Assembly (NCBI RefSeq): GCF_002355215.1
Contig: NZ_AP014612.1
Location: forward strand, 1,240,001 to 1,304,000
Direction: 5' to 3'
DNA: 64,000 nt
Source: Streptococcus troglodytae
GTDB taxonomy: Bacteria; Bacillota; Bacilli; Lactobacillales; Streptococcaceae
Both the position numbers and the translations under genes were made by a program. The first letter of the stretch is position 1, and each line of letters opens with the position of its first letter. Shown here piece after piece: positions 14,520 through 22,713 of the stretch. Below the pieces are notes generated by a model that had not been told where the DNA came from, searched no databases, and was given only the letters and a program-made list of their open reading frames with translations.

Positions 14520-17500
14520 TTAAATCCCTGTATAAGTCTCCACTAATTTTTGTAATTTTGCTAAAATTTCGTGTTTCTTACGTTCACGGGCACCCTTTCG
14601 ACGCGAGGTAGCTGGCATTAGATTATTAATGTCAGTGCCAGAAGACGATACATATCCCTGAGCAATAGAACGATTAATAAATCGACGATAGTCTCCCTTT
14701 AATGTAAGCTCTTCAGCTAAATCCTCTATAGCTTTCTTTTTCTTCTGATTACCATAAGCATAAAAAGCTTCTAATATTGTCTGATTATCTTTTAATTGTT
14801 CTAAGTGTGTTTCATTAATAAATCCAATCACTAGTTCTTCTTTAGCTCGCATATCAATGCTTGAACGAATAACACGACTAATATCCCGTTTCAATGTTTC
14901 CTTAGAATCATTATCTTGTGCTTTTGCAGAGATAAGACTAATAATATAATCAAGGTTAATCTCATCCGTTTTTAAAAGTTCAATTTCAAATTCTATATCG
15001 GATAAATCAATACCAGTTTCTTCATTTTTACCAGTTCGACCATTTCCATATGCTTCTTCTCGAATATCTACATATACACTTCTCATGTCCTGCATTTGAC
15101 CTGGTGTAATGAGATGCTCTTCTGGCGTAAATTCATCATAATTTCTTAAAACATTCTCTAGCTTAAGGACTTCCCCAAATAATTTAACAAATTCTCGTTT
15201 TTCAGATTCTAGAGCAATTTCTGTTGGATCAGGAAATTTTTCAAGTATTTCCTGACAAACCTCTTGATAACCTTTTACTGTAATACCAGCTTCTTTATCT
15301 GTAAAACCAGTCATATACTCTTCGTAACTCTTCTCAAGTACTACCGAAATACTGTGTGATTCACCATAAAGTGTCAAAGCATCATTAGTAGCTTTTTCTA
15401 AATCACGGAAGCAAACAATATTCCCAAATGGCTTTTCTTTATTTAAAATACGATTTGTACGAGAAAATGCTTGAATAAGCCCATGATATCGTAAATTTTT
15501 ATCTACAAAGAGTGTATTCAAAGTAGGAGCATCAAAGCCTGTTAAAAACATTCCTACCACAATCAAAAGATCTACTTCTTTGGATTTTACACGTTTGGTT
15601 AAATCTTTATAATAATTTTGGAAATCCTTTCCTTCTGTTGAGAAATTTGTTTTAAAGTGTTTATTGTAGTCAGATATAGCCAAATCTAAGAATTCTTTTG
15701 AAGAAAGATCCATTTTCGTTGGTTCAAAGTTTTCTGAATCTATAGCCCCATATGCTAACTGTTCTTCATTAGGCACATAACTATAAATAGTAGCAATTTT
15801 GATTCTTTTATCTACTGGCAATTGTCTTTGTTGCTTATTGAGCTCTTCATAATAAGCTTTCGCCGCTTTAACATTTTGTACCGCAAACATAGCATTAAAG
15901 CCTTTAAGTTGTTTTTGTTTGTGAGTATAGTGCATATTTCGATGGGTTTTATCATCAAATACTTTAAGTAAATATTTTGAGATTGTTGAAATACGCTCTG
16001 GATGTAAAAGTAATTCTTTTTCAATTTTTTTAAGTTTCTTTTCATCGTTTTCTTGTCCAGATATTACTTCGGCTTCTCTAAATTTATTCAGTTCTGGTTT
16101 AATATAATTATAATCCACTTTAAATTTCAACACTTTGTTATCACGAATAGCATCTGTGATAATATAGGAATGAAGCTGTTTACCAAAAATAGTACTTGTC
16201 AACATACCTGTTAAAGTATTATCTTCAAAGATTGGTGTACCTGTAAAACCGAACTGATAATGTGCTCTAAAACTGGACCTAACCTTTCTTTGAGCATCTC
16301 CAAATTGAGAGCGATGGCACTCATCATAAATTAAAACACATTGCTTTTCAAAGATAGGATGTTCAGGATTTTTCTTGACGAATTCATTTAATTTCTGAAT
16401 TGTTGTCACAACAATTTTACTATCATCCTTCTCAATAGCTCTTTTTAATTCTTTAGTATTCTTACTACCATTAACAGAATCCTTTTGAAATTTCTGATAT
16501 TCCTTCATGGTCTGATAATCTAAATCTTTACGGTCAACAACAAAGAAAACCTTGTCAATATAATCTAATTCTGTTGCTAAACGTGCAGCTTTAAAACTTG
16601 TCAGAGTTTTACCAGAACCAGTAGTATGCCAAATAAATCCTCCTGCATCAGTTGTACCGTAGAGTTTATTTTCATGCGCAACATGGATCTGACGCATAAT
16701 GGCTTCTGTTGCTGCAATTTGATAGGGACGCATGATCAAAAGAGTATCACTAGTATCAAAAACACAATACTTTGTCAAAACGGATAAAAGAACTTGCTTA
16801 TTTAAAAAAGTTTGTGCAAAATCTTCTAAATCATAAATAATTTTATTCTTTTTATCTGCCCATTCACAGGTAAATTCAAAATGATTTTTATTTTGAGCAG
16901 TTGTATTGGCAAAATAACGTGTACGCGTCCCATTTGAAACAACAAAAATTTGAATATACTGAAAAAGTGAATGTTGTGTGTTAAAGGATTCTTTGCTATA
17001 ACGATGAATCTGTTCAAAGGCTTCCTTCATTGGAATACCGCGTTTTTTTAATTCAATCTGTACTAGGGGCAGACCATTGACTAAAATTGTCACATCATAA
17101 CGGTTAGAATGACTTCCTTTTTGCCTAATTTGACTTACAACTTGTAAATGATTCTGATGAATGTTTTTCTTATCAATCAGTATCATATTTTTAATATGCC
17201 CATCATCAAAAATAAAATCATAAATATGATTCTCTTGAATTTTACGAGTTTTTTCAATCATCCCATCATTAGGACGATCCAAATATTCATCTAAAAAACG
17301 CTGCCACTCATCATTTGTAAACGTTACATTATTAAGTTTTTCTATTTGCTTACGCAAATTACTCATTAATTCTTCTGCTGTGTGAATGGTTAATAATTCG
17401 TAATGCTGACCTTGAACCAGATCCTCTAACAGTTTCTTTTCCATCTCATTTTCAGTCTGATAAACATCTCGATTATAACGCTCTGTTTTTACAAATTCTT

Positions 17501-21116: not shown

Positions 21117-22713
21117 GGCTCAGCTCCTCCACGATTTTATCAATCTCACTGCGTAGGTGATCAATCTTCTTGACCGTTTCGGCGATTTCTTTGTTGAGTT
21201 CATCAATATTGATAATCTCGCGTGTGTCACGCTTTTCAACATAGGTTGATACAGATAAATTGTAATCATTTTCCTCAGCAATCAGATTATTATCAACAAG
21301 TTTAGCCTCATAATCAACATCTTCTTTATTTTTAAATAATTCAACAATAGCTTCGATATTTTTTGAGTTTAATATCTTGCCATTGGTTACTGCCTCATAA
21401 AATTTATTCTTACCAGAAACCGTAGATTTTTCATCTGAAGAAGCATCAATAAAGAGTGTTTTATCCTCAGGTTTATTTTTTGCCAAAACTAAAATATAGG
21501 TTGCAATGCTTGTTCCATAAAAAAGATTATCAGGCAAGGCAATAACAGCTTCAACAAAATTATTATCAATCAAGTATTGACGGATTGTCTTCTCAGCTCC
21601 TCCGCGATAAAAAATTCCAGGAAAGCAAACAATTGCTGCACGACCTTTATTGGATAAATGGCTAAGACTGTGCATAATAAAGGCAAAATCAGCTTTTGAT
21701 TTAGGAGCTAATTTACCAGCTGGTGCAAAGCGCTCATCATTAATTAAGGTTGGATCAGCATCCCCAATCCACTTGATAGAATAAGGAGGATTAGAAACAA
21801 TGGCATCAAAAGGTCGTTCGTATAGATGCTGAGGGTTTAACAAGGTATCGCCACGGCGAATATCAAAATTATTATAGTTGATATTATGAAGAAACATATT
21901 CATCCGTGCCAAGTTATAATTAGTCATATTAATCTCTTGACCAAAAAAACCTTCTTCCAAAATATGGGTTTCAAATTGTTTCTTCATTTGAAGCAATAGT
22001 GAGCCTGAACCACAAGTTGGATCATATACTTTATTAATATGCTCTTTTCCAACCATAACAAGTTGAGCAAGAAGTTTCGAAACAGTTTGCGGTGTAAAAA
22101 ACTCTCCGCCACTTTTACCTGCATTAGAGGCATAGTTAGAAATCAGATATTCATAGGCATCACCAAATGCATCAATATCATTTTCTTCAAAAGTGCCAAA
22201 ATCAAGCCCAGCTATTCCTGTCAAAATATCTGATAAGCGTTTGTTCTTTTCTTTAACAGAACCTCCCAAACGATTTGAGGTTGTATCCACATCATCAAAG
22301 AGTCCCTTAATCGCATGTTCTGAATCTTTACCAATTGCGGATTCTTCAATTTTCTTGAAAATCTTTGCTAAGTCCGTATTTAAATTTTCATTTGTTGAGG
22401 CTGTTTTGACTATATTTTCAAAGAGTTGTGAAGGCAAAATAAAAAAGCCTTTTTCTTCTACTGTATCGGGTTTGAAATCTTCTTCAGCTTCTTCATCACT
22501 GAGATCAGCATAACGAAAGTCTGGATCACCGGCCTCATGTTCAGCACGATCAAAATAATCAGACATATTTTCAGAAATAAAACGATAAAAAAGAATCCCT
22601 AAGATATATTGCTTAAAATCCCAACCATCTACAGCACCACGCACATTATCAGCAATAGCCCATATTTTTTGATGCAATTCTTGTCTTTGCTGACTTTCTT
22701 TATTGAACGACAT
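21109..22713 (-). CDS. hsdM: Type I DNA methyltransferase subunit HsdM
   Basis: 534 residues. The N-terminal helical domain (DFKQYILGILFYRFIS, 33-47) pairs with HsdS. The N6-adenine methyltransferase core has DPTCGSGS (231-238, S-adenosylmethionine binding) and SNPPYS (307-312, catalytic NPPY). It methylates the target in complex with HsdS and forms the platform for HsdR. First gene of the hsdM-hsdS-prrC operon; AAAGGAA precedes the ATG. The C-terminal helices (EIAETVKKIDHLRSEIDKIV) are a coiled coil. Confidence 0.96.
   Translation of the reverse strand: MSFNKESQQRQELHQKIWAIADNVRGAVDGWDFKQYILGILFYRFISENMSDYFDRAEHEAGDPDFRYADLSDEEAEEDFKPDTVEEKGFFILPSQLFENIVKTASTNENLNTDLAKIFKKIEESAIGKDSEHAIKGLFDDVDTTSNRLGGSVKEKNKRLSDILTGIAGLDFGTFEENDIDAFGDAYEYLISNYASNAGKSGGEFFTPQTVSKLLAQLVMVGKEHINKVYDPTCGSGSLLLQMKKQFETHILEEGFFGQEINMTNYNLARMNMFLHNINYNNFDIRRGDTLLNPQHLYERPFDAIVSNPPYSIKWIGDADPTLINDERFAPAGKLAPKSKADFAFIMHSLSHLSNKGRAAIVCFPGIFYRGGAEKTIRQYLIDNNFVEAVIALPDNLFYGTSIATYILVLAKNKPEDKTLFIDASSDEKSTVSGKNKFYEAVTNGKILNSKNIEAIVELFKNKEDVDYEAKLVDNNLIAEENDYNLSVSTYVEKRDTREIINIDELNKEIAETVKKIDHLRSEIDKIVEELSHD

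What the first reader, a model, noticed from the sequence alone, without database searches (positions are those of the whole stretch)
14520..22713. Type I restriction island with a PrrC anticodon nuclease and an embedded DinJ/YafQ toxin pair
The order hsdM-hsdS-prrC-hsdR equals the E. coli prr locus, where PrrC lies latent in the restriction complex and cuts tRNA-Lys when a phage inhibits that enzyme. The PrrC here keeps the ATPase motifs and the R296-E300-H332 triad at the exact spacing of R320-E324-H356. New to this arrangement is dinJ-yafQ between prrC and hsdR. YafQ has its catalytic residues and cleaves mRNA in the ribosome, so one locus holds DNA restriction plus two independent ways to stop translation. 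Loss or inhibition of any layer could trigger another.
Basis: partly seen in the sequence, partly recalled or inferred. Interest (0 to 1): 0.85.

Follow-up and report, generated by a model that had tools for sequence, protein, structure and literature searches.

The report
Restriction island carrying two anti-phage toxins
A bacterial DNA-cutting defence locus carries a known tRNA-cutting guard gene and a known toxin-antitoxin pair; the pair sits where the guard gene and the cutting gene are usually joined, and may give the cutting gene its own switch rather than form one three-layer machine.

Summary
The genes are as described: minus strand hsdM, hsdS, prrC, dinJ-yafQ, hsdR, a type IC restriction system in a Streptococcus close to S. 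mutans. PrrC keeps its ATPase motifs and Arg/Glu/His triad; YafQ keeps its active-site residues. In this assembly the first prrC codons lie in another frame and hsdS changes frame twice near its start; a 98%-identical unbroken PrrC exists. The hsdM-hsdS-prrC-hsdR order is the known prr arrangement. dinJ-yafQ was found in none of 105 other PrrC loci; in 97 of 102 junctions prrC and hsdR overlap or lie within 37 bases. The pair is the known S. mutans RelBE and goes with hsdR, not prrC: G011, without a detected prrC, has hairpin, promoter, dinJ, yafQ (broken) and hsdR as a homologous cassette, and published relBE primers point beside hsdR. Most likely it is a hitchhiking or stabilising cassette that uncouples hsdR from prrC and gives it the toxin-antitoxin promoter (inferred). 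Mutual triggering of layers has no support. Extra: tandem repeats of four different units mark a likely phase-variable switch fusing a third recognition domain to HsdS.

The parts
21109..22713 (-). hsdM, type I methyltransferase subunit
   Evidence: TIGR00497 E=9e-197, N6_Mtase and HsdM_N
20870..21116 (-). 5' part of hsdS, in two frames that differ from each other and from the main frame
   Evidence: start overlaps the hsdM end by 8 bases; first frame (its stops), second frame; borders approximate
19289..20899 (-). hsdS main frame, 536 aa, with three Methylase_S stretches and RQKQY repeats at residues 124, 324 and 522
20533..20568 (-). 12-base repeat, three copies (LTSELTSELT), like the spacer repeat recalled for EcoR124
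19845..19863 (-). pentanucleotide repeat between the second and third recognition domains of hsdS; here in frame, so the third domain is fused
19216..19277 (-). first codons of prrC, in a different frame from the rest
   Evidence: against P0001
18181..19215 (-). prrC main frame, 344 aa, from Walker A to the end
   Evidence: PADLOC PrrC E=3e-125; alignment; 98% identity to unbroken P0001
18138..18173 (-). hairpin followed by a T run between prrC and dinJ: terminator-like and/or operator-like inverted repeat
   Evidence: fold z=-2.3, 6 of 200 shuffles as good; counterpart in G011, z=-1.6, 12 of 200; not listed by the terminator scan, whose loop limit of 8 it exceeds
18130..18138 (-). extended -10 promoter-like element TGATATAAT, identical in G011
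   Evidence: not listed by the consensus scan, which asks for a -35 hexamer
17835..18107 (-). dinJ (relB), antitoxin, 90 aa
   Evidence: TIGR02384, PF04221 (scanned with one extra leading residue); translation
17570..17848 (-). yafQ (relE), mRNA interferase toxin, 92 aa from the internal ATG; overlaps the dinJ end
   Evidence: PF15738 E=3e-29; 97% and 95% identical to S. mutans proteins P0121 and P0122
14520..17567 (-). hsdR, type IC restriction subunit, starting 2 bases after the yafQ stop
   Evidence: TIGR00348 E=6e-177, EcoR124_C

Best explanation
This is an ordinary type IC restriction-modification island with the usual prrC guard gene, in which a known type II toxin-antitoxin cassette (terminator-like hairpin, promoter-like element, dinJ, yafQ) lies directly in front of hsdR. 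PrrC, where unbroken, would stay latent in the restriction complex and cut tRNA-Lys when a phage inhibitor disturbs that complex (known for E. coli, inferred here). DinJ-YafQ acts separately, as an autoregulated mRNA interferase pair. Its lasting effect on the island is to break the close prrC-hsdR coupling and to move hsdR into the toxin-antitoxin transcription unit; this may also tie the cell to keeping hsdR, the subunit that a type I system can lose at little cost. Shown: gene identities, the gap statistics, and the homologous cassette in a second genome. Inferred: transcription from the dinJ promoter into hsdR, the stabilising role, and function of each protein in this strain.
For: Gene order equals two annotated E. 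coli loci apart from the pair. By script, prrC stop and hsdR start lie -44 to +37 bases apart in 97 of 102 junctions, but 613 bases apart here. DinJ/YafQ found in none of 106 loci searched, 105 of them with PrrC. G011 has dinJ (92% nt), yafQ (78%, broken) and hsdR (78% over the first 900 bases, 71% over the last) behind the same hairpin and extended -10 (82%; shuffles mean 48, highest 57), while the 100 bases upstream are no better than shuffles (45%; mean 47); no PrrC was found in G011. HsdR of the window and of G011 lie in one supported clade of four (97/86). Published S. mutans relBE primers: the forward one matches the dinJ promoter with 3 mismatches, 0 in shuffles; the complement of the reverse one encodes SKVVLPV, as in the HsdR start of G011.
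Against: No transcript data. The -10 element has no good -35; the promoter scan found 7 sites against 8.5 in shuffles and listed neither it nor the hairpin, and the hairpin may let transcription through. Only two genomes show the cassette directly. On the HsdR tree G011 groups with G264 and G260 (98/92), of which G264 has no pair and G260 ends at the contig edge, so the pair was lost or gained more than once or moved. In G011 yafQ is broken and hsdM was not found (no positive control). Neither relBE primer fits G011, nor the reverse one the window, at up to 3 mismatches. Published work reads relBE as a general stress and persistence module (PMC3547324, passages), which needs no link to hsdR.
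Confidence: 0.58

Rival explanations
1. Three-layer defence: restriction, PrrC and YafQ act as one interlocked unit in which inhibition or loss of one layer releases the next.
For: All three lie together, and both toxin families stop translation (functions from PMC2610378 and PMC3547324, passages).
Against: 0 of 105 other loci with PrrC have the pair; the pair occurs without a detected prrC in G011; hairpin and promoter-like element separate it from prrC; prrC and hsdS are interrupted in this assembly.
Confidence: 0.1
2. Chance neighbourhood: the hsdS-hsdR interval is a cargo slot that collects unrelated small defence or selfish genes, and dinJ-yafQ has no regulatory effect on hsdR.
For: Other cargo occurs at hsd junctions: a HigA-type gene with a small HigB-like partner in G264 and G263 between hsdS and hsdR; Fic in L070, Bro-N in L080 and YhcG in L087 between prrC and hsdR; RhuM (L134) or Fic (L113) between hsdM and hsdS. 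The prrC label needs 9 changes on the HsdR tree, at least 7 on supported branches, and G264 in the same clade lacks the pair.
Against: The hairpin-promoter-dinJ-yafQ-hsdR unit keeps order and spacing in G011 while the upstream gene differs, and hsdR starts 2 bases after yafQ, so any promoter of its own would have to lie inside yafQ.
Confidence: 0.27
3. The island is decaying: prrC and hsdS are pseudogenes and only the toxin pair and perhaps hsdR still matter.
For: A frame change in prrC and two in hsdS. In the AlphaFold model of P0001 the 344-aa frame would lack helix 6-15 and half of strand 20-25 before Walker A. In G011 hsdM was not found and yafQ is broken.
Against: hsdM, hsdR, dinJ and yafQ are open here. 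The frame changes may be assembly errors: an ABC-F type gene in the window is also split, but a wider check was inconclusive (6 of 38 genes broken against 2 of 17 in a control genome).
Confidence: 0.25

Closest known systems
E. coli prr locus (EcoprrI hsdMS-prrC-hsdR)
   Same: Gene order, type IC HsdR, PrrC motifs and triad spacing
   Different: In the two E. coli loci read, prrC and hsdR overlap or abut; here a toxin-antitoxin cassette lies between them, and prrC and hsdS are interrupted in this assembly
S. mutans chromosomal RelBE (relBEchro; PMC3547324, passages read)
   Same: YafQ 95-97% identical to S. mutans entries; promoter primer matches with 3 mismatches; reverse primer encodes the HsdR start
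   Different: A link to hsdR or prrC is not mentioned in the passages read; the hsdR start of the window differs from the primer at 8 of 22 bases
Restriction-linked cargo genes (rlo genes, RhuM, Fic, HigBA) in hsd loci
   Same: Extra genes held between hsd genes; rloC/rloE/rloG are named so in PMC2610378 (passage read)
   Different: Different families; here the cargo comes with a terminator-like hairpin and a promoter-like element in front of hsdR
Phase-variable hsdS with simple repeats (NgoAV; PMC7394358, passages read)
   Same: A repeat tract whose length decides between a shorter and a longer HsdS
   Different: Here the tract decides whether a third recognition domain is fused; four different repeat units are used at one place

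Membership tests
Type IC restriction-modification system | HsdM, HsdS and HsdR with EcoR124-type HsdR | tested here: met
   EcoR124_C E=2e-64, HsdM, Methylase_S
Type IC restriction-modification system | Unbroken HsdS | tested here: not met
   Two frame changes near the hsdS start in this assembly; real or assembly error not settled
PrrC anticodon nuclease | ABC ATPase motifs and R-x3-E-x31-H triad | tested here: met
   G30-K31-T32 of Walker A, D189-D190-P191 and R296/E300/H332 invariant; Rad50/SMC-like fold matches with low TM-scores
PrrC anticodon nuclease | Short form (341-416 aa in PMC2610378), unlike RloC (658-897 aa with zinc hook) | tested here: met
   P0001 365 aa, main frame 344 aa, no CX2C insert seen in the alignment
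PrrC anticodon nuclease | Lies inside a type I R-M locus, normally between hsdS and hsdR | tested here: met
   Window, and the survey; L132 and L133 have another order
PrrC anticodon nuclease | One open reading frame | tested here: not met
   First codons in another frame; unbroken homologues exist
PrrC anticodon nuclease | Cleaves tRNA-Lys and is released by an anti-restriction factor | not testable with these tools
   PMC2610378 (passage) mentions unpublished activity for an S. mutans PrrC
DinJ-YafQ (RelBE) type II toxin-antitoxin | Antitoxin and toxin in an overlapping operon with family domains and active-site residues | tested here: met
DinJ-YafQ (RelBE) type II toxin-antitoxin | Toxicity, neutralisation and autorepression | not testable with these tools
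   Effects of ectopic RelBE expression in S. mutans are cited in PMC3547324 and PMC3543317 (passages)
RloC | Zinc-hook coiled-coil insert | tested here: not met
   Length and alignment

The most novel reading that the evidence does not exclude
hsdR has been captured by a toxin-antitoxin operon. The DinJ-YafQ promoter and operator is the promoter of hsdR, so the level of the restriction subunit follows antitoxin breakdown (restriction rises under stress), and the cell is addicted to the one subunit that type I systems lose freely. Upstream, hsdMS with a repeat-driven switch of specificity and the guard prrC form a separate, insulated unit.
Probability: 0.3. Interest if true: 0.62.

Novelty: new variant of a known kind. 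Interest (0 to 1): 0.45.

Why it matters
Type I restriction systems are thought not to be addictive by themselves (recalled). A toxin-antitoxin pair that shares a transcription unit with hsdR would explain how such a system is held in a genome, and would give restriction a stress-controlled promoter. It would also show how prrC and hsdR, adjacent or overlapping in most loci surveyed, can be separated. The repeat tracts in hsdS make a switch of DNA specificity in many streptococci directly testable.

Tried and rejected
The three-layer reading was tested by survey and lowered.

S. mutans as the species of the window: suggested by YafQ identity and by recalled gene order, but both mazEF primers, which PMC3547324 uses for S. 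mutans, are absent from the genome at up to 3 mismatches (no genome known to match was in the search). I therefore write 'close to S. mutans'.

Frame changes as assembly noise: a first count gave 6 of 29 genes broken in sampled stretches; a larger one with a control gave 6 of 38 against 2 of 17, so nothing can be concluded. ORF lengths were mixed too: length-weighted mean 450 aa in the sampled genome, 567 in G013, 413 in G011, 495 in the window.

Plasmids and phages: in both collections the YafQ relatives are under 60% identical (408 plasmid and 14 phage records); their neighbourhoods were not examined. Order-wide sample: 104 of 395 genomes have a YafQ match, and none of the 21 new loci read has hsdR within about 1.5 kb. 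Within the genus 62 of 284 genomes match; of the 30 loci read, 2 (window and G011) have hsdR adjacent; the other matches were not read.

PDB by sequence gave no convincing PrrC relative (best E 0.46). ARAGORN found no tRNA genes in the window. The consensus promoter scan showed no excess, and the terminator scan listed other sites, not the hairpin described here.

Papers: ten searches listed no title or abstract start, and the passages read (PMC2610378, PMC12964521, PMC12707154, PMC3547324, PMC3543317, PMC7394358, PMC11514479) held none, that describes dinJ-yafQ between prrC and hsdR; the other papers were seen only as listings, and subscription journals are mostly missing.

On the second check I added a shuffle control and the placing of the repeat arrays, told that G011 groups with a genome lacking the pair, and moved two odds by 0.02 for it (best explanation down, chance neighbour up).
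Full report
What is there. The minus strand of 14520-22713 reads hsdM, hsdS, prrC, dinJ, yafQ, hsdR. Profile searches name each part: HsdM, a specificity subunit with three Methylase_S stretches, RelB/DinJ, YafQ, HsdR with the EcoR124-type C-terminus that marks type IC, and a PrrC model with E=3e-125. In the window's own genome the PrrC query and the ParE-family toxin model each match once, both in this locus.

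State of the genes. prrC starts with an ATG at 19277, but its first codons are in a different frame from the 344-aa main frame that begins at 19215. An unbroken protein 98% identical to the main frame exists (P0001, 365 aa, 40 member sequences). hsdS has its start at 21116 and changes frame twice before its main frame. Whether this is real or assembly error is open: a test for split genes gave 6 of 38 in sampled stretches of this genome and 2 of 17 in a control genome. A model of P0001 (mean pLDDT 85.6) puts a helix (6-15) and the strand before Walker A (20-25) in the part that the main frame lacks or cuts. Its best fold matches are Rad50/SMC-type ATPases and a retron ATPase, with low TM-scores.

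PrrC identity. In 28 aligned sequences, including two E. coli proteins from annotated hsd loci, G30-K31-T32 of Walker A, D189-D190-P191 and the triad are invariant; R296, E300 and H332 of P0001 correspond to R320, E324 and H356 of the 396-aa E. coli protein. Davidov and Kaufmann (PMC2610378, passages read) state that PrrC is invariably linked to type Ic systems and that an S. mutans PrrC has similar activity (their unpublished result). So prrC in this setting is known.

How unusual the toxin pair is here. PrrC relatives were found in 27 of 284 Streptococcus genomes, one of them a weak match, and the best 80 of 456 loci were kept from a species-wide collection. Of 106 loci searched with the window proteins (those 80 plus 26 Streptococcus stretches; five species are in both sets; L136, the weak match, gave no PrrC), none gave DinJ or YafQ at E 1e-4; the same kind of search finds pairs of about 45% identity. 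In 102 loci with hsdR downstream, 97 have prrC and hsdR overlapping or at most 37 bases apart, hsdR starts being placed by script. The other five are L037 (161 bases), L070 (1318), L080 (931), L087 (1020) and L128, where prrC is interrupted. L070, L080 and L087 carry Fic, Bro-N and YhcG genes there. Two loci (L132, L133) have another order, with no hsdR downstream, and L039 ends before hsdR. In the window the distance is 613 bases.

The pair goes with hsdR. Genome G011 has dinJ, yafQ and hsdR in the same order and spacing, yafQ being broken; no PrrC was found there, in a search that found it in 27 genomes including the window's own, and hsdM was not found, in a search without a positive control. 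The contig begins 363 bases before the first upstream gene, so a missing hsdM may be an assembly gap. Homology to the window is 71-92% in the five segments compared from the hairpin to the hsdR end, and at shuffle level just upstream (45%, shuffles mean 47), where G011 has a HigA-type gene preceded by a weak HigB-like match and the window has prrC. The genes beyond hsdR also differ as far as I can read them (names recalled), so the cassette has probably moved. A closely similar gene couple lies between hsdS and hsdR in G264 and G263 (by eye; HigA model E=4e-18 for G264, no hit for its small partner). On a tree of 43 HsdR proteins (1 of 44 dropped because its frame was not found) the window and G011 fall in a supported clade of four (97/86), but G011 groups there with G264 and G260 (98/92), and G264 has no pair, so losses or moves are needed. 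The label prrC needs 9 changes, at least 7 on supported branches. The interval is therefore a cargo slot in which prrC comes and goes, with dinJ-yafQ attached to hsdR in one lineage.

It is a known pair. YafQ proteins named Streptococcus mutans are 97% and 95% identical. PMC3547324 (passages read) gives primers for the chromosomal relBE that it reports in some S. mutans strains: the forward primer matches 18114-18137 with 3 mismatches, where shuffles give none, but not G011. The reverse primer matches neither the window nor G011 at up to 3 mismatches, but its complement encodes SKVVLPV, which is the HsdR start in G011 (4 mismatches) and close to that in the window (8 mismatches). So relBE very probably lies beside hsdR in those strains too, although the passages read do not say so. 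Ectopic expression of RelBE is cited there as causing growth arrest and persisters, and in PMC3543317 (passages) as inducing persisters.

Likely working. Between prrC and dinJ lie a hairpin followed by T residues (fold z -2.3 in the window, -1.6 in G011) and an extended -10 element that is identical in both genomes. hsdR starts 2 bases after the yafQ stop. From this I infer that hsdR is transcribed with the toxin pair and apart from hsdMS-prrC. The pair could then stabilise hsdR and subject it to autoregulation. This is inference: there is no transcript evidence, and the consensus scan for promoters and terminators listed neither element, the hairpin loop being longer than it allows.

A second feature inside the locus. 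Between the second and third recognition-domain stretches of hsdS lies a pentanucleotide tract (19845-19863). In Streptococcus relatives the same place carries two or more copies of CAGTA or GAGTA in 34 of 46 loci including the window (17 of the 34 have only two copies and one has an imperfect copy), AACGG x21 in one more (L184), and two to four copies of GGACAGT, counted by eye, in three more (L114, L122, L169): 38 of 46. Of the eight others, L167, L170 and L186 hold no hsdS or only its end, L132 and L133 have another gene order, and L118, L119 and L123 gave nothing. Among the 34, the third domain is in frame in 12, out of frame in 21 and undetermined in 1. In 683 kb of 44 loci there are 17 pentanucleotide arrays of three or more perfect copies: 16 are CAGTA/GAGTA arrays, all 16 at this junction, and the other is the AACGG tract at the same junction of L184; shuffles of the window give 0.02 per 64 kb. 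Units whose length is not a multiple of three, four different units and both frame states point to a phase-variable switch that adds a third recognition domain. Repeat-driven hsdS variation is known in general (PMC7394358, passages).

Verdict.

Noticed in passing
19845-19863 and 37 further loci among L111-L131, L134, L135 and L168-L185: Repeat tracts of four different units (CAGTA, GAGTA, AACGG, GGACAGT) at one place in streptococcal type IC hsdS, in 38 of 46 loci, with in-frame and out-of-frame states: a likely phase-variable switch adding a third recognition domain.
   Followed up: partly
L134, L121, L129, L111 between hsdM and hsdS; L113: A 334-336-aa gene (RhuM family by Pfam in L134, the others alike by eye) or, in L113, a Fic gene lies between hsdM and hsdS: a second cargo place, empty in the window.
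   Followed up: partly
L169, L183, L167: A HigA-type gene with a small HigB-like partner (weak or no profile hit) in the slot between hsdS and hsdR, or upstream of dinJ-yafQ-hsdR in L167.
   Followed up: partly
Protein P0002: PrrC whose first two thirds match P0001 and whose last third matches the S. mutans protein P0006, by eye: apparent swapping of the nuclease part between alleles.
   Followed up: no
L132, L133: PrrC relatives in loci of order hsdR ... prrC-hsdM, with hsdR only 36-37% identical to the window's; their type was not tested, but the order differs from the other loci read.
   Followed up: no
9232-11099: An ABC-F type ATPase gene is split into two overlapping frames: a pseudogene or an assembly error.
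   Followed up: no
20533-20568: Three copies of a 12-base repeat in hsdS (LTSELTSELT), resembling the length-variable spacer repeat recalled for EcoR124/EcoR124II.
   Followed up: no
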